From positions 1 to 64,000 of the forward strand of contig JAJDBB010000039.1 of NCBI GenBank assembly GCA_029261555.1: DNA of 64,000 nt. Reading direction: 5' to 3'. Positions within the stretch are counted from its first letter, which is position 1. Every line of letters starts with the position of its first letter. Below, piece after piece: positions 12,971-54,325 of the stretch. The position numbers and the translations under genes are program-made. The notes under the pieces are model-generated. The model ran no database searches and was not told the origin of the DNA. It worked only from the letters and a program-made list of their open reading frames with translations. This stretch comes from Nitrospinaceae bacterium. GTDB lineage: Bacteria; Nitrospinota; Nitrospinia; Nitrospinales; JACRGP01.

Positions 12971-13275
12971 AAGTATAAAAGTATGGAAACAGGTTTTTGA
13001 TTTTTCAGTCAGTGAGCCGGAAACATAACATAAATTGGAAACCCTTGCCAACCAGCCAGCGTCAGGACTACGCCGGAGGCTCCGGGAGGCTAAACCCCGA
13101 CCATTAAAATTTTTAGAGGAAGAATCACCCCACCGGCGAAGGCGCCGGGGCCAGATAGATTTAGCCTATATGGAGAGCTACAAGTTGTGGTGAGTTTGCA
13201 AATCCAATCCATTGCCTCCAGGCGCTTGCCTGGCGGTGGTTGTAATCCGCTTTGGAAATTTGTAAAATTTTAAGC
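12971..13275. other. Intergenic gap between divergent pfkB-type kinase and dacB genes
   Basis: About 300 bp separate two divergent genes, so both promoters should be here. Much of the right half is occupied by dispersed-repeat modules (13133-13237). A degenerate CCAGCG-type segment is visible around 13044. No convincing small ORF was seen. Confidence 0.6.
13133..13237. repeat. Composite dispersed repeat with two opposed hairpins
   Basis: The left hairpin is CCGGCG-AAGG-CGCCGG (13133-13148), the reverse orientation of the family stem. The right hairpin is CCAGGC-GCTT-GCCTGG (13218-13233), perfect, preceded by the typical TTGCCT. Between them lies GTGAGTTTGCAAATCC, like the GAGTTTG...CAAACTC module of the 22-kb array. 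It ends ~40 nt before the dacB start codon. Confidence 0.75.
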
Positions 13276-20685: not shown

Positions 20686-21789
20686 TCAACCGTCGTCGCG
20701 GATCTTTTTAATTTCTTCCCGGATCACTTCCCGCGCCACGCGAGGGGCCGCCTCGCGAATAATTTCAACCGTTGCCCGAAGGATGCTCTCAGACAGCCCG
20801 GCTACCTGCCGGTCCACAACTTTGTAAACGGCGTTTTCCAAAACCTTGCACATCCTGTCGGCAACCTTGTCCGCAAATTCGTCGCGGTTGAGGTCGAAGT
20901 ACACGTCCTGCGGAAGGTAGGACTTCACGGTATTGGACGCCGTTTTTACAGGCTCGTCCCCGGCGTCCGCCTTGGGCGGGGTTTTGGGAGGATCGGTTTC
21001 TTTTGAACTATCGGAATCCATGAAAGCCGAAGGCGCCAGGCGCTCCAGAAGGTTTTCCGACTCCGGCTCGATCTCGCCCAGTTCTGAAATGAAGGAGCCT
21101 CTTTTACCGCGCGCGGATTCGTCTTTTTCCTCGCTCGTTATATCCTGAAAAGCGGTTTCCAGATCCTCAAAACTGTCCGCGGGATTGGACTTCAATTCCG
21201 CCAGCGATTCGTCCATCGGGTCCGCGGGCGTCTCCGTCTGTTCCTCGCCGATCCACTCGTCCGGTTCTTCCTTGAGCGCTTCGTCCAACTCGTTCAGCAT
21301 TTCGTCGATGATGGCGGCGACCTCGTCGGACATGGAATCGACCGGAAGTCCGTCCTCCCGAGTTTCATCCTGGACAATGCTGTCGGCGCTGAGTTGAATG
21401 AGCGAAGGAGCCGGTTCCGTTGCCGCAACGTCTCCGCACACCGCGTTGACTTTTTCAGAGAGTTCCTCTGCGTCCAAGGGTTTGGCGAGAAAGCCGTCCG
21501 CGCCGCAGGATTTTAAATCATCAAACTTTTCCGAGTTGGCGCTCAGCAGTATCACGCCGAGGGATTGGAGCGTTTGGGAGTTTTTGATTTTGCCGCACAA
21601 CTCGGCGCCAGAGAGTCCCGGCAGGTCGGCGTCCACAAGCATTATGTCTGGCCGCGTTTCTTTTATCTTCAACAACGCTTCCCGGGCGTTGCCAGCGCCG
21701 TAAATTCGGTCGTCCTCTCCGCGGAATGCGGCGGCGACCTGTTTGTATGTTGAAGAGTCCTCGTCGGCAACGAGAATTTTTACGCTCAT
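20686..21789 (-). CDS. Response-regulator receiver protein with long acidic linker
   Basis: The start at 21789 (MSVKILVADEDSS) begins directly with a CheY-like receiver: acidic pocket ADED, phospho-acceptor Asp in IMLVDADLPG, Ser/Thr switch in ILLSANS, and the conserved Lys in FLAKPLD. A ~170-residue Glu/Asp/Ser-rich linker follows, then a C-terminal helical segment of ~75 residues (VYFDLNRDEFADKVADRMCKVL...). No DNA-binding or enzymatic output domain is recognised. Similar receiver plus C-terminal helix proteins occur in deltaproteobacteria, sometimes near motility genes. The product is 367 aa. The track ORF adds 34 residues upstream without receiver similarity. Confidence 0.8.
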   Translation of the reverse strand: MSVKILVADEDSSTYKQVAAAFRGEDDRIYGAGNAREALLKIKETRPDIMLVDADLPGLSGAELCGKIKNSQTLQSLGVILLSANSEKFDDLKSCGADGFLAKPLDAEELSEKVNAVCGDVAATEPAPSLIQLSADSIVQDETREDGLPVDSMSDEVAAIIDEMLNELDEALKEEPDEWIGEEQTETPADPMDESLAELKSNPADSFEDLETAFQDITSEEKDESARGKRGSFISELGEIEPESENLLERLAPSAFMDSDSSKETDPPKTPPKADAGDEPVKTASNTVKSYLPQDVYFDLNRDEFADKVADRMCKVLENAVYKVVDRQVAGLSESILRATVEIIREAAPRVAREVIREEIKKIRDDG

Positions 21790-21955
21790 GGAAATCGGCT
21801 CGCGTGGTGAATAAAGGTTTGGGACCCTGGAACGGCCTCCGGGCGGCGGGGCTTTTGATGATTGGTCGCGGAAGGAGGCGCGAAATATCAACCGGAATCA
21901 AGTATAGCAATGGAGACGACTATTTTTAAAGAAAATTCTTCATCCGCCAACCACT

Positions 21956-22360
21956 GGCTCCGGCGCCTCGCCGCCACTCGCCGTGGAGGCAGGAGTTTGA
22001 GACGCAAACTCACCTAAGCTTGAGCCGATTTTCCTTAACGTTACACTGATAGGCTTCGGCGCCTCGCCGCCACTCGCCGTGGAGGCAGGAGTTTGAGACG
22101 CAAACTCACCTAAGCTTGAGCCGATTCTCCTTAACGTTACACTAATTGGTTCCGGCGCCTCGCCGCCACTCGCCGTGGAGGCAGGAGTTTGAGGCGCAAA
22201 CCCACCTAAGCTTGAACCGATTCTCCTTAACGTTACACTAATTGGTTCCGGCGCTTCGCCGCCACTCGCCGTGGAGGCAGGAGTTTGAGACGCAAACTCA
22301 CCTAAGTTTGAACCGATTCTCCTTAACGTTACACAAATTGGTTCCGGCGCCTAGCCGGCT
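21956..22360. repeat. Tandem array of a 96-bp repeat, four full units plus a partial fifth
   Basis: Units start at 21956, 22052, 22148 and 22244, exactly 96 bp apart, with a truncated fifth at 22340 ending in CCGGCGCCTAGCCGG. Each unit has a GC-rich hairpin region (GCCTCGCCGCCACTCGCCGTGG...GAGGC), a perfect GAGTTTG-AGACG-CAAACTC stem (21993-22011 in unit 1) and a TTAACGTTACAC segment. Units differ by few substitutions; unit 3 breaks the small stem by one base. There is no unique spacer, so it is not CRISPR. Sequence modules match single dispersed copies elsewhere in the window. Confidence 0.95.
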
Positions 22361-22428
22361 TTTGCCTGCCGCCCGGTCTGTGCTAGGATGTTTGACTTTT
22401 TAAATCATAAATTCGACCTGAAAACCGC

Positions 22429-24378
22429 ATGCATTTTTTCACCCGCAACCCAAAAACTTTTAACCGGCGCGTCTCTCAAAAAATCATTGAAACCTTTTAC
22501 GCCGCTGTTCTAACCGGCCTGTTTCTTCACGCCCTGGCGGGTCCGGCGGCGGCGCAATACCTTGAACTGGACGCCCTGGCGGACGTTAAAACTAAATTCA
22601 GTTCCGGCTGCTCCTCTGTGCAGGAACTGGCCAATGTTGCCCGCCAAAGAGGGTTGGACGCGGTTTTCTTCAGCGATTCCGACCGCCACTCCCTGGAAGA
22701 GGGAATCTGGCCGTTGGAAAATATCCTCAAAGACAAGCAGGAGTACAATTCGGTTTCACACAACGGAGCGGCGGCTTATTGGTCCGCGATAAAATTGGCC
22801 GACGAAAGTTTTAAGGACCTGCTGTTGATTCCGGGAGTGGAATCGGCCCCGTTTTATTTTTGGGGAGAGAACGCGGGAGGAGCGAAACGCACCGCCCATA
22901 ACTGGGACAAGCACCTGTGGATCGTAGGCCTGACCAGCGCTTTGGATTACGACGCCTTGCCCACTCTTCACGGAAACTTTTCCACGCGCTACAGCGCGCA
23001 ATTTTCCAACTTGTTTTTAATTTACCTTGCCGCGTTCCTGGTCGTCGCCTTCGCGGCTTACAAGAAAAAGGAACGCCGCCGCTGGCTCGCCGCCGGCGCC
23101 TTTTTTATTTTACTACTTACGATCAACAACCTTCCTTTTCGCAGTTCGCCGTTTGATCCCTACCACGGCGACCAGGGAGTTCGGCCCTATCAGGAGGTTA
23201 TTGATTATGCGAATTCCAAAGGCGCCATGACGTTTTGGAATCACGTCGACGCCAACAAGACCACGGATCTGAACGGTTGGGGAACGCAAAAGACCTTGCC
23301 GCATCCGGAAGACTTGGCGCTGACGAATGATTACGTCGGTTTCGAAGCGGTGTATCCCGGAAAATCTCTGGCGGCGGAACAGGGAAACGAGTGGGACCGG
23401 GCGTTGATAAGGTTCATTCGCGGCGAACAAAAAAATCCCGTGTGGGCTTATGGAGGCAGTGATTTTGAATGCGAAGGCAAGGATGGGCGAACACTGGGAT
23501 CGTACCGGACTGTTCTCCTGGCCCAAGAGAAAACCCAGTCTGCCGCGATGGACGCTCTGCGCAAGGGAAGAATGTACGCCGTGCGCCAATCCAAAATGGA
23601 CAACCGGCTGGCGCTGGCGAAGTTCGGCGTTCGCGACGCCGCCGGAACCCGCGAGGCCCTGATGGGAGAGGAGTTGTTGACCGAGACGGCGCCGACGGTG
23701 ACCGTTGAATTGCGCGCGAAATTCGGCGGCCAGCCTGCGGTTCCCGCAAAGGCGATCGTCATTCGCAACGGCAAGATAGCGCACGAGGCGAGCGGCGTTC
23801 TTCCTCTCAAAATAAGCTGGAAAGACGACTCGGTTTTGAAGAAGGGCCGCGCCTACTATCGAATCCGGGCGGAAGTGGGCGGCGAGGATTACCTGCTATC
23901 CAACCCGGTATTCGTTCGCTTTGGCAAGGAGAAGACGCAGGTCGCTTCCCTGCCGCAGGCCGGAGCGCCGGTGGCCGCGTCCGCACAGGCGCCGCTCCGT
24001 AGGCCCGAGGGAGCCGGCGAACCGGAAGAGAAAAAGGAAAATCGCAACGTCCCCCGTTTCGACGTCGATTTTTCCAAACCGCAAACGAGCGCCAAACCGC
24101 AAAACCGGGAAACGAAAACTCCGCCGCCGGCGAGCCAACCCGTCGTGCAACCCGCGCCTGGAGAGAAAGAGCTTCAATACGCCGTGGCCAGGATCGACGG
24201 CCTGGCGTTGAAGAAAGGCCCTGGCCTAAGTTTTCCACAGATCGCTTCCGCGCAAAAAGGCGAGCGGCTGGAGTTGATCCGTACGACTTCGGCGATGTAC
24301 AACGACAAGCCCTGGCTGGAGGTGCGTAAGGGGGCGCTAAAACTTTACGTCTGGTCGCCGCTGGTATCCATCGAGTGA
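22429..24378 (+). CDS. Degenerate PHP-type protein with membrane segments and C-terminal SH3-like domain
   Basis: Order of parts (649 aa): N-terminal signal or anchor (~residues 20-43); a PHP-like region DVKTKFSSGCSS...GLDAVFFSDSD aligning with the usual DLHxHTxxSDG...ITDHD, but with the first metal-binding histidines replaced by Lys; two membrane helices around residues 190-235; the rest of the PHP-like domain (TFWNHVDANKT, WAYGGSDFECEG); a Pro-rich linker; and an SH3_3-like module (ARIDGLALKKGPGLSFPQI...). PHP enzymes are phosphoesterases; loss of ligands suggests a binding or structural role. It is probably an envelope protein. It begins ~70 bp after the tandem repeat array. Confidence 0.6.
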   Translation: MHFFTRNPKTFNRRVSQKIIETFYAAVLTGLFLHALAGPAAAQYLELDALADVKTKFSSGCSSVQELANVARQRGLDAVFFSDSDRHSLEEGIWPLENILKDKQEYNSVSHNGAAAYWSAIKLADESFKDLLLIPGVESAPFYFWGENAGGAKRTAHNWDKHLWIVGLTSALDYDALPTLHGNFSTRYSAQFSNLFLIYLAAFLVVAFAAYKKKERRRWLAAGAFFILLLTINNLPFRSSPFDPYHGDQGVRPYQEVIDYANSKGAMTFWNHVDANKTTDLNGWGTQKTLPHPEDLALTNDYVGFEAVYPGKSLAAEQGNEWDRALIRFIRGEQKNPVWAYGGSDFECEGKDGRTLGSYRTVLLAQEKTQSAAMDALRKGRMYAVRQSKMDNRLALAKFGVRDAAGTREALMGEELLTETAPTVTVELRAKFGGQPAVPAKAIVIRNGKIAHEASGVLPLKISWKDDSVLKKGRAYYRIRAEVGGEDYLLSNPVFVRFGKEKTQVASLPQAGAPVAASAQAPLRRPEGAGEPEEKKENRNVPRFDVDFSKPQTSAKPQNRETKTPPPASQPVVQPAPGEKELQYAVARIDGLALKKGPGLSFPQIASAQKGERLELIRTTSAMYNDKPWLEVRKGALKLYVWSPLVSIE

Positions 24379-31094: not shown

Positions 31095-31889
31095 ATGGCG
31101 GGACCACAATCGGGAGTTTTTGACCTGTCCCATAAACACATTACGCTTTTAGCGCTGGAGGTTCCGGAAGCGGGCCTGAGCGCGGGGAGCGTGAGCAAGG
31201 CGGCGGCGGTGATCCCCGCATTGACCGCCGGATTGGGAAAGGATCGCCCGGAATGGAATCCGGTTTCTTTCGTCGCGTTCCGCCCCTTGTTCTGGAGCTT
31301 TGCCTGGCAGGGCGGACAGCCCAGCGGCTTGCACCCGGCGCGTAAGTTATTCGGCGCCGTCGAAGCGGCGGAGCTGGAAGGCGATATGTTGATCTGCCTG
31401 GCCTCGGAATCCCCGGAATGCAACGACGCTTTGGAACAACTTGTTCTTGAGAAACTAGGCCGGGCGGTAGACATTCTGGAAAATTTTAAATTTCCTCCCT
31501 CCCCGGACGCCCGTTCATTAAGCGAACCCACCCGCAATACCCTGATTGGCAAGGATGACCCGGAATTTGAAAACGGAGCGCTGGCGGTCACGCGACATTT
31601 TTTCCGGCCAGGAGCGGCGTCTTCCACGCCGGTTTTTTCGAACCCCGAACAATTGGGCGAGGGTTATTGTTTCTCCTGCGAAAATGACGAGGATTGTTTC
31701 CAAATCGTAATGAGCAAGGACGCAGTGAGTTTTTCAGGCTTGGCCGATCCGGAGGACGTCGAGGGCGTGGAAATAAAGTCTAAAGGATATTATTTTATTC
31801 CATCGCTTGATGTTTTACTGGGTTTGCGACTGGGCGGCATCCGCATGGGCACCCTGTCCCCCACCCACCCTTATAAAGATCCAGCGTGA
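31095..31889 (+). CDS. DyP-type peroxidase-like protein lacking the usual catalytic segment
   Basis: Recognised by comparison with YfeX-type DyP peroxidases from memory: N-terminal PQSGVF...HITLLALEV, then FVAFRPLFWSFAWQGG in place of the VVAFGNNTWR stretch, then a second ferredoxin-like half with LAVTRHFFRPGAAS (cf. LKIVRQSLPYGTAS), a GYCFSC strand and GYYFIPSLDVLLGL (cf. GYYFAPSLDKLMAL). The GxxDG motif with the catalytic Asp is missing; the segment that carries it and the proximal heme histidine looks shortened by roughly 35 residues. It is therefore likely a non-peroxidase paralogue, perhaps not heme-binding. The product is 264 aa, 53 bp after the metalloprotease gene on the same strand. 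Its stop codon falls inside a repeat hairpin. Confidence 0.55.
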   Translation: MAGPQSGVFDLSHKHITLLALEVPEAGLSAGSVSKAAAVIPALTAGLGKDRPEWNPVSFVAFRPLFWSFAWQGGQPSGLHPARKLFGAVEAAELEGDMLICLASESPECNDALEQLVLEKLGRAVDILENFKFPPSPDARSLSEPTRNTLIGKDDPEFENGALAVTRHFFRPGAASSTPVFSNPEQLGEGYCFSCENDEDCFQIVMSKDAVSFSGLADPEDVEGVEIKSKGYYFIPSLDVLLGLRLGGIRMGTLSPTHPYKDPA

Positions 31890-31992
31890 CGCTGCCACTC
31901 GCCGTGGGGGCAGGGTCTGAGATGCAAGCTCACCGCAGTTTGTAGCGTTACCCAAACAAATTACACTTATATGCCTCCGGGGGCTACCCCGG
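31879..31992. repeat. Complete composite dispersed repeat at a convergent gene junction
   Basis: Three modules occur in order: CAGCG-TGA-CGCTG (31882-31894); GCCACTCGCCGTGG with TCTGAGATGCAAGCTCACC; and a CGTTACCCAAACAAATTACAC segment leading to the hairpin CCGGGG-GCTA-CCCCGG (31977-31992). The TGA of the first hairpin loop is the stop of the DyP-like gene, and the last hairpin encodes C-terminal residues of the FAH-family protein on the other strand. Confidence 0.85.
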
Positions 31993-47342: not shown

Positions 47343-48064
47343 TTAAATATGCCACCGGCGGGCGCTCCGGGTAAACTGCAGACACCAATAAACCTGTGCG
47401 CCAATCGCGGCGGGGGGGAGGAGATACCAGAGCGCCCCTCCCAGGCTGAGGAATAGGACGATAAAACAAAAATCACTGCGAATGACCCGCGCATTCAGAA
47501 CGAACCTGTCCATTTTGGTGTCGTCGTCTTTGGGCAAAGAATCCTCATGCGTCAACTGGCTTGCGTGGGGTTTGGTTTTGTTCTGATAAAGCTCCAGGGC
47601 GTAATTTATGCTGCCGCCAAACCCCGCCGCGACGCCCGTCCAGAACCACCACTGCTGTCCTGTAACAGAGGAAGCCCCCCATCCAAGGCCCATAAAGAAA
47701 CAGGCATGCACCAGCCAGTCTACAAAGGTATCGTAGCGCATTCCGAAAACGCTCCGCATATCCTTGAGCCGGGCTATTTCCCCATCGCAATTGTCGAGGA
47801 CATAACAAATCAGGAATAAAACAGACCCTGTGAGTATGGAAGAATAATCTCCATTCAAACAAAAGGCGCCTGCGGCCAAACCAAAACCCAGCGAAATGCT
47901 TGTTATTTGATTCGGCGTGATCGGAGTCTTCATCAAAAGAAACGTTACGGGGTAAGACAAATGCCTGATGAAGGGCTGAAGGTTCCTGGGAGGACTCAGC
48001 TTTTTTCCTGCTTCGGTTTGAAATGTATTTTCTGAAGAAATAATGTTATTCCGAGTTGGACCAA
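47343..48064 (-). CDS. CDP-alcohol phosphatidyltransferase family protein, start uncertain
   Basis: Membrane enzyme joining a CDP-activated alcohol to a second alcohol. The catalytic signature DNCDGEIARLKDMRSVFGMRYDTFVD has all Asp and Gly residues of D-x2-DG-x2-AR-x8-G-x3-D-x3-D. The track begins at a TTG (47960), inside the conserved N-terminal stretch (SYPVTFLLMKTPITPNQIT). The frame stays open upstream (PKQEKKLSPPRNLQPFIRH, family-like) to a TTG at 48064, so I extend it there; no ATG is available. A degenerate repeat module sits at the extended 5' end and may have displaced the original start. It is probably cotranscribed with the flippase-like gene. Confidence 0.8.
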
Positions 48065-48221
48065 CGTGGCGCTGGACTCAGCGGTTGGCGATTGGGGAAT
48101 TTATTAAAAGTCCGGATTTCAACCTGTCGAACTTTCGTTATTGTATCCGAGTTGAAAGCACACCCGAGATCGTTACGTTACCCAAACAAGTTACGCTATC
48201 TGCCTCCAGGCGCATGCCTGG
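48061..48221. repeat. Dispersed-repeat modules between two minus-strand genes
   Basis: A degenerate CCAGCG-type module (CGCTGGACTCAGCGGTTGG region, 48069-48095) and a complete hairpin CCAGGC-GCAT-GCCTGG (48206-48221), preceded by CGTTACCCAAACAAGTTACG. The hairpin ends at the base before the stop codon of the FG-GAP gene. Confidence 0.75.
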
Positions 48222-50615: not shown

Positions 50616-51140
50616 ATGGAAGCTTTAAAACAAGCCATTCGCGATATACCCGACTTTCCCAAGGAAGGCATTCTCTTTAAAGACATCACCCCTGCGCTGG
50701 AGGACCGCGTGGTATTTCGGAAAGTGATGGACGCGTTGAGGGAGCGCTATAAGGACAAAAAGATCGACGCGGTGGCGGGAATCGAGGCGCGCGGATTCGT
50801 TATGGCCTCGGCGCTGGCGTATGCGCTGGGCGCGGGACTGGTCCTCATCCGCAAGCCGGGTAAGCTTCCCTACCAGACGCACCGGAAGACCTACGACCTG
50901 GAATACGGAACCGACTCCATGGAGATCCACGTCGACTCGATCAAGACGGGGCAGAACGTGCTGTTGGTCGACGACGTGCTGGCCACCGGCGGCACCATCG
51001 CTGCGGCGGTGGATTTAATTCAATCCAACTTCAAGGCGAATATTGTGGAAGTGGCGTTCATGTTGGAGCTGGATTTTTTAAAGGGCCGCGAAAAACTCAA
51101 CGGCACAAACGTCTCCATCCATTCGATGGTTAATTATTAA
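50616..51140 (+). CDS. apt: Adenine phosphoribosyltransferase
   Basis: Salvages adenine to AMP using [30 protein letters not shown] is the classic Apt N terminus, and [18 protein letters not shown] is the PRPP-binding loop. The product is 174 aa with no signal peptide. AAAGGA lies 12 bases upstream of the ATG. The gene converges with the nitroreductase gene, and their ends overlap by 4 bp. Confidence 0.97.
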
Positions 51141-51742
51141 AAATAATTTTCGACTACCAGGTCGCTAAGCGGCGTCTGGCCGGGCTTGGGCCAGGGGGCC
51201 TTCGTTCCCTTGCCGATGGCGACCATCGCGCCCATTACATGGTCGTCGGGCAGGTTGATCAGCTCGGCGACCTTTTCGATATCGAATCCTATCATCGGGC
51301 AGGAGTCGTAACCCATCGACTTCGCGGCAAGCATCAGAGTTTGCATCGCCATGCCAATCGACCGCTGGGCCTCGTCGCGTTGCAACCATTCCCGTCCCTC
51401 GTGGAACGGTCCCATCCAGTTGACTAACAATTCCGCCACTTCCTTCGGCGCGTTTTTCCAATAACGCTCAGGATCCTTCTGCCAGGCTTTAACGTCGGCG
51501 GTCATGATAATCAGCAGAGAAGCGTCGGTCATTTGCGCCTGGTCGTTGCCGAACTCCGTGCGAATTTTTCGCCGCAGTTCGGGATCGCGCACGATAACGA
51601 ATCGCCAGTGCTGAATGTTAAAACTTGTCGGCGCCTGAATCGCCGCCTCTAGCAGTTTGGTTTCCTCCTCGGGCGTGAGTTTGTGTTCGGGGTCGTACTG
51701 TTTGACGGCGCGGCGTTGGTAAATGGCGTCGAAGGTATCCAT
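51137..51742 (-). CDS. Nitroreductase family protein
   Basis: FMN-dependent NAD(P)H oxidoreductase fold. [23 protein letters not shown] contains the N-terminal R-R-A/S-V motif that binds FMN phosphate; [17 protein letters not shown] and [12 protein letters not shown]...[19 protein letters not shown] complete the fold. The product is 201 aa, cytosolic. The substrate is unknown; members reduce quinones or nitro compounds, or serve as dehydrogenases. It stands alone downstream of the DUF4911-like gene. Confidence 0.92.
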
Positions 51743-53893: not shown

Positions 53894-54325
53894 GTTAACT
53901 ACAAGCCAGTTGAAATAATAATTTCATGGACTTGCCATTGTACATAAAATCATCGGAGAGGATAAAGAATAAAACCCCGGAGCAGCCCCCGGCCAGCGTG
54001 ACGCTGGACCTAGTTGGCGCCGGGGCCAATAAGGCGCAGCTTACTTGGATAACGTTACACGCTTGGGTGCGCTTGCATTTTGAACCCTGCCCCACGGCGA
54101 GTGGCGGGGAAGAGGGGAGGCCAATAGGCAAAACTTTTTGGCCCATGGATTAATTTAATGCATTGTCGTCGTCGCTAATTTATAATGAGTGGCTGAGCGT
54201 GGGGTTCCAAACCCTGACAGGGTAGTCAAAAAGATTCTTACTTTTTGAATCGGCCCTGGAACGCACGAAATCTCTTATTAATCGCGGCTCCTCTTCCCCA
54301 GAGCGGGCCTCAACGTAATGGACTC
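53894..54325. other. Repeat-rich gap between divergent mnmG and hpnH
   Basis: About 430 bp containing dispersed-repeat modules (53993-54107) and the promoters of two divergent genes. The track ORFs at 53926-54153 and 53895-54146 are open frames through repeat DNA and have no protein-like features. TTTATAATGAGTGG near 54180 could be a -10 region for hpnH. Confidence 0.5.
53993..54107. repeat. Composite dispersed repeat, partly inverted
   Basis: CCAGCG-TGA-CGCTGG (53993-54007) followed by ACCTAGTTGGCG, an AACGTTACAC segment, and CCCTGCCCCACGGCGAGTGG (54086-54105), the reverse complement of the CCACTCGCCGTGGGGGCAGGG module. Module order and orientation differ from the 31.9-kb copy. Confidence 0.75.

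What the first reader, a model, noticed from the sequence alone, without database searches (positions are those of the whole stretch)
21956..22360. 96-bp tandem array derived from the dispersed repeat
Four units of exactly 96 bp plus a partial fifth, between a receiver-protein gene and a PHP-like gene. Each unit fuses the modules that occur separately elsewhere, and units are nearly identical, so expansion is recent or kept homogeneous. Internal stems (GAGTTTG-AGACG-CAAACTC) would form repeated hairpins in RNA or cruciforms in DNA. Unit number may vary between strains and affect the downstream gene 70 bp away.
Basis: seen in the sequence. Interest (0 to 1): 0.62.

Follow-up and report, generated by a model that had tools for sequence, protein, structure and literature searches.

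The report
Tandem array of hairpin-capped dispersed repeats
A 400-base stretch between two genes of an uncultured Nitrospinaceae bacterium is a four-unit head-to-tail run of a small repeat that occurs hundreds of times in its genome, built from hairpin ends shared across the whole bacterial order and a middle part found only in this genus; it resembles known REP/BIME repeats in design and is probably not a regulator of the neighbouring gene.

Summary
The array is real: TRF gives 21955-22357, period 96, 4.2 copies. It is the longest of many small arrays of one dispersed family. Each unit is cap-core-cap. Caps are short GC palindromes of about seven sequence types with a conserved tail (NNNCA); the core is about 67 bp. 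At least 150 core copies were scored in each of the two genomes of the genus (scoring limit reached; about 500 by extrapolation) and none in two other genera of the family. The caps are spread through the order, where other genera build arrays of the same 95-99 bp period from the same caps and unrelated cores. Unit number differs (2 versus 1) at one orthologous site. The array lies between two candidate promoters, so it is probably not in the downstream mRNA. Best reading: a BIME/REPIN-like composite repeat without GTAG/CGTC tag or detectable RAYT, tandemly expanded. New variant of a known kind; regulation of the next gene is unsupported.

The parts
21955..22357 (+). Tandem array, 4 full units of 96 bp plus a terminal cap
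   Evidence: TRF; the repeat finder
21956..22051 (+). Unit 1 (cap T3b - cap T4 - core)
22052..22147 (+). Unit 2
22148..22243 (+). Unit 3 (carries the substitutions that weaken the GAGTTTG/CAAACTC stem)
22244..22339 (+). Unit 4
22339..22358 (+). Terminal cap T3b, TGGTTCCGGCGCCTAGCCGG: CCGGC/GCCGG stem that closes the array
21973..21991 (+). Cap T4 of unit 1, GCCACTCGCCGTGGAGGCA (copies at 22069, 22165, 22261); 54 matches in the genome with up to 1 mismatch, also in other families of the order
21985..22047 (+). Core of unit 1 (profile match; further cores 22081-22148, 22177-22244, 22273-22340)
21932..21954 (+). Remnant that flanks the array on the left and is itself repeated (TCATCCGCCAACCACTGG, compare TCCAATCGCCAACCACTGG beside other copies)
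   Evidence: L029, L028, L005; G001 matches to window 21932-21992
21901..21930 (-). Candidate promoter of the receiver gene (TTTAAA-18-TATACT, TG before -10); the AAGTATANCATA motif is common at this place in other genomes of the order
22362..22389 (+). Candidate promoter of the downstream gene (TTGCCT-16-TAGGAT, TG before -10); counterpart TTGCCA-17-TAGGAT in G003. Weak consensus match (8 of 12), read by eye, not flagged by the scan
   Evidence: sequence; G003 and others
20686..21789 (-). Response-regulator receiver protein gene
   Evidence: PF00072
22429..24378 (+).
31881..31992 (+). Single dispersed element: T2 - T4 - core - T1
13133..13233 (-). Single dispersed element whose core is absent at the orthologous G001 site
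53993..54113 (-). Dispersed element; the orthologous G001 site holds a differently composed element

Best explanation
The array is a local head-to-tail expansion of a genus-specific, hairpin-capped miniature repeat of REP-dimer (BIME/REPIN) design. SHOWN: the unit is cap-core-cap; caps are palindromes of several types with a common tail and face inward in opposite orientation; caps are shared across the order while cores are genus-specific; copies are intergenic; composition and unit number change at orthologous sites. INFERRED: elements spread, now or in the past, as non-autonomous DNA, with the hairpin ends as the part handled by an enzyme in trans (not identified); once adjacent copies exist, unit number rises and falls by slippage or unequal recombination. 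The array persists because it lies between two promoters where extra DNA is tolerated; it has no demonstrated role in the expression of either neighbour.
For: Array and unit structure. Family size and genus restriction of the core. Caps order-wide, with zero hits for the reversed control patterns. Same caps with different cores at 95-99 bp period in G002, G004, G021. Palindromes preserved across different stems (4.88 of 6 pairs; 4.08 with halves swapped, maximum 4.26 in 200). Mixed cap pairs and the NNNCA tail. Intergenic placement (127 of 128), usually just after an upstream stop (median 8 bp, against 104 bp to the downstream start), no core orientation preference (26 versus 34). Turnover at orthologous sites. 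Distance decay of identity between units. Position between candidate promoters.
Against: No transposase was tied to the family: Y1_Tnp (RAYT) is absent from G000, G001 and G004 and present in G003, which lacks T2 caps. No target-site duplication or clean empty site was seen; the one site lacking the core still has a cap, which also fits deletion. Elements are not depleted between divergent genes (15 of 67 gaps against 45 of 261 tandem, p = 0.50), unlike published REPs. Gene calls were made with a simple codon model of my own.
Confidence: 0.72

Rival explanations
1. Structured regulatory RNA: the array is transcribed as a leader or small RNA whose repeated hairpins control the downstream gene.
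For: Units fold somewhat better than shuffles on the + strand (z -0.9 to -1.7), and the closing stem GGCTC/GAGCC of units 1-2 reads GGTTC/GAACC in units 3-4, a paired change.
Against: RNAalifold finds no consensus structure for 50 copies; no covarying core helix; no Rfam match (best is E 1.8, far below its gathering score); candidate promoters lie outside the array on both sides; cores are unoriented relative to genes.
Confidence: 0.07
2. DNA-level element of the host: protein binding sites (nucleoid protein, gyrase or similar) whose ~96 bp spacing (about nine helical turns) matters, kept by selection.
For: Period stays at 95-103 bp in arrays with unrelated cores, in several genera and two families, with two exceptions (111 and 36 bp); caps nearly unchanged while the core diverged at one orthologous site. 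Gyrase and IHF binding is known for E. coli BIMEs (own knowledge).
Against: Rapid turnover of composition at orthologous sites; variable number and type of caps; no binding data. The constant length would also follow from a mobile unit of fixed size.
Confidence: 0.13
3. The order-wide cap palindromes are ordinary terminators or mRNA 3' stabilisers that are reused, and the core is an inert spacer.
For: In tandem gaps elements start a median of 8 bp after the upstream stop codon.
Against: Elements are as common between divergent genes, as in this array; no T-run follows the caps as a rule (sequences); both orientations are used.
Confidence: 0.05
4. Assembly artefact of a short-read metagenome.
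For: The genome is a 129-contig draft, one array stands at a contig end (C90), and the G001 locus lies in a contig gap.
Against: Units differ from each other by substitutions; similar arrays are found independently in G001, G002, G004 and G021; the contig continues for 103 kb.
Confidence: 0.03

Closest known systems
REP dimers / BIMEs and REPINs (GTAG and CGTC superfamilies; PMC3733652, PMC3116915)
   Same: Short GC palindromes with a conserved tail at one end, in opposite orientation at the two ends of a spacer; heterodimers and conserved spacers of 20-100 bp; high copy number; intergenic, often right after stop codons; tandem clusters of dimers also known (P. fluorescens SBW25, 184-bp spacing).
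   Different: Tail is NNNCA, not GTAG or CGTC (12 of 232 exact caps have such a motif nearby); about seven palindrome types occur in 26 pairings; a ~67 bp core is itself conserved in the genus; no RAYT found in this genus; not depleted between divergent genes.
BOX elements of Streptococcus pneumoniae (PMC3049150)
   Same: Composite repeat of modules with a tandem, strain-variable number of one module.
   Different: boxB is an internal module between fixed ends; here the whole cap-core-cap element is repeated and the ends are palindromes of several types.
MITE with internal minisatellite (Porphyromonas gingivalis, PMC4596501; abstract only)
   Same: Dispersed miniature element associated with tandem repeats.
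   Different: No shared terminal inverted repeat sequence or target duplication was seen here.

Membership tests
REP (GTAG/CGTC-tagged) | 20-40 bp palindrome in many intergenic copies | tested here: met
   Caps:
REP (GTAG/CGTC-tagged) | Unpaired GTAG or CGTC at one end of the palindrome | tested here: not met
   12 of 232 exact caps; usual tail is NNNCA
REP (GTAG/CGTC-tagged) | Predominantly between unidirectional or convergent genes | tested here: not met
   Occupied gaps: divergent 15/67, tandem 45/261, convergent 13/59, p = 0.50
REPIN | Two palindromes in inverted orientation with a spacer forming one unit | tested here: met
   cap1 and cap2 are classified in opposite sense at the two core ends; the two caps are often of different type, so one long hairpin does not follow
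REPIN | Associated RAYT (Y1_Tnp) gene in the genome | tested here: not met
   PF01797 absent from G000 and G001 (each about 86% complete) and G004; control genomes were positive
BIME (descriptive class) | Mosaic of palindromic units with other short motifs, in clusters | tested here: met
   a descriptive class only
MITE | Shared terminal inverted repeat and target-site duplication at empty/filled sites | tested here: inconclusive
   One core-less orthologous site, which keeps a cap; no duplication seen; few sites comparable
Structured non-coding RNA (Rfam) | Match to a family or a covarying fold | tested here: not met
BOX | boxA-boxB(n)-boxC sequence | not tested
   No sequence comparison made; different phylum

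The most novel reading that the evidence does not exclude
Nitrospinales carry a third kind of REP dimer: hairpin ends with an NNNCA tail, mobilised by an enzyme other than RAYT, which have taken up a different core in each genus while the unit length stayed near 95-100 bp, and which amplify in tandem at tolerated sites.
Probability: 0.3. Interest if true: 0.65.

Novelty: new variant of a known kind. Interest (0 to 1): 0.45.

Why it matters
REP-type repeats are usually explained by a RAYT transposase and a GTAG tag. Here an order-wide set of palindromes without that tag, in genomes with no detectable RAYT, surrounds cores that differ by genus but keep one unit length. If borne out, it separates the conserved part (the ends) from the passenger (the core) and gives a natural system for asking what moves and what limits the size of such repeats. 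No paper on such repeats in Nitrospinota was found in the held library, which lacks most subscription journals.

Tried and rejected
RAYT search in the own genome and four relatives: negative in this genus. Rfam in gathering and permissive mode: nothing; the HDV-like hit (17.2 bits against a gathering score of 44) is taken as chance. Consensus RNA fold of the core: none, so the leader-RNA idea was lowered to a rival. A genome-contig scan with the neighbouring protein gave only one record (Nitrospinaceae MAG OFTM44), which starts inside the gene and cannot show the array. Whether GTAG inside 57 of 148 cores is a relic REP tag was considered; the array's own subfamily has GAACC/GAGCC there and the following stem is weak, so it was not used.

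Full report
OBSERVATION. The window holds one strong tandem array, 21955-22357, period 96, 4.2 copies, 94% matches and no indels, in a 640-bp gap between a receiver-domain gene on the minus strand (20686-21789; PF00072) and a divergent gene on the plus strand (22429-24378). The four full units are 92-96% identical and neighbouring units are the most alike, as expected from stepwise duplication followed by divergence. The fifth piece is only the closing palindrome TGGTTCCGGCGCCTAGCCGG.

WHERE IT IS FROM. The window is part of a 3.05-Mb, 129-contig draft whose nearest named relative found is a Nitrospinaceae MAG, OFTM44.

THE FAMILY. The 96-bp unit matches 56 places in its own genome, the array included, and many in the one other genome of the genus, but not elsewhere in the order apart from short pieces that cover mainly the cap. 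A sequence profile of the core reached the scoring limit of 150 matches in both genus members and gave none in G002, G003 and G004 of the same family; a few weak hits in G021 and G047 (E about 1e-4) were not examined. The window itself has 11 core copies, which would mean about 500 per genome if typical.

ANATOMY. Reading 128 copies in 571 kb gives a simple grammar: cap1 - core - cap2. The core is about 67 bp (roughly GTTTGAGATGCAAGCTCACC-N7-TTGNANCGTTTCCCTTAAACGTTACACTA). Caps are GC-rich palindromes of about seven types, for example CCAGCGTGACGCTGG, CCAGGCAAGCGCCTGG, CCGGGGTAGCCCCCGG, CCGGCGAGGCGCCGG, CCGGGCAACGCCCGG and GCCACTCGCCGTGG, followed by a tail of the form NNNCA (one type has TGGAA instead). 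The two ends carry caps in opposite sense, usually of different type: cap1 is mostly T4 or T6, cap2 is spread over seven types, and 26 pairings were seen. The array unit is cap T3b + cap T4 + core, so the array reads T3b-(T4-core-T3b)x4. Tandem pairs and triplets at 95-103 bp are frequent in the family (L075, L087, L080, L091, L061, L071 and others); the window's four units are the most in any of 73 occupied gaps.

STRUCTURE. Cap palindromes are kept although their sequences differ: 4.88 of 6 stem positions pair in 106 downstream caps, against 4.08 (maximum 4.26 in 200 trials) when the two halves are swapped between copies. This control does not remove the effect of relatedness within a type. 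The core, in contrast, gives no consensus fold and no covarying helix.

CAPS REACH FURTHER THAN CORES. The T4 cap pattern is found in 33 of 64 genomes of the order, in 12 of 16 genera; the T2 cap in 40 of 77 genomes of the phylum, up to 236 copies in one genome, all but one genome inside the order. Reversed control patterns gave zero in every genome. In G002 and G004 (another genus) and G021 (another family) caps form tandem arrays of 95-99 bp period with unrelated cores; exceptions are one 111-bp array in G021 and a 36-bp T4 array in G044. The same intergenic gap carries cap palindromes in several other genomes (G004; L117, L121, L124).

TURNOVER. Orthologous sites in G000 and G001: at 13.1 kb the core is absent in G001 though a cap remains; at 31.9 and 54.0 kb both genomes have repeat material but of different composition. 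At one locus G000 has two units and G001 one; at another the same element stands in both, with caps nearly unchanged and core clearly diverged. The array locus itself cannot be compared: the G001 contigs end inside the two flanking genes.

PLACEMENT. 127 of 128 copies are intergenic or at stretch ends, one falls in a predicted gene; the share of occupied gaps does not differ between convergent, divergent and tandem gene pairs (p = 0.50). In tandem gaps elements begin a median of 8 bp after the upstream stop and end 104 bp before the next start (p about 5e-5), without orientation preference (26 versus 34). Here the array lies between a candidate receiver-gene promoter (-10 TATACT, 21901-21906, the motif recurring at this place across the order) and a candidate promoter of the downstream gene (TTGCCT-16-TAGGAT, 22362-22389; TTGCCA-17-TAGGAT in G003). 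The second is a weak consensus match judged by eye. If right, neither mRNA contains the array.

EXPLANATION. The design is that of REP dimers: inverted tagged palindromes around a spacer, with heterodimers, conserved spacers and tandem clusters described in PMC3733652 and PMC3116915. Membership in the GTAG/CGTC superfamilies fails on the tag and on gene-orientation bias, and the RAYT expected for REPINs is not found in this genus. Two drafts at about 86% completeness could each miss one gene, but both missing it is unlikely. I therefore describe it as working like a BIME/REPIN-type repeat with an unknown mover, expanded in tandem by slippage or unequal recombination, and held where it does little harm. 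The spread and expansion steps are inferred; structure, distribution and turnover are shown.

LIMITS. Nearly all genomes are drafts; copy number was not checked against reads; gene calls come from a simple codon model; stretches were chosen for having hits, so densities outside the window are biased upward (20 copies in 147 kb of later, less selected stretches).

Noticed in passing
G044 (T2 cap counts); L151:345-440: One genome of another family has 236 copies of the T2 cap, and a 36-bp, 2.7-copy array built on the T4 cap.
   Followed up: partly
window 51133-51141; L096:1254-1801: G001 has about 547 bp inserted here relative to the window, with what looks like two small open frames (possibly a toxin-antitoxin type pair, not tested).
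   Followed up: no
window 48061-48221: A longer, 160-bp form of the element (a second 5' module with CGAACTTTCGTTATTG joined to the core) is matched at many G001 places at 71-75% identity.
   Followed up: partly
L060 (G002:C60): The Y1_Tnp match of G002 lies about 1.6 kb from a cap palindrome; whether it is a RAYT linked to caps is open.
   Followed up: no
window 22429-24378: Protein conserved in 53 of 64 genomes of the order, next to a divergent receiver gene in those inspected, but without a Pfam match above cut-off.
   Followed up: partly
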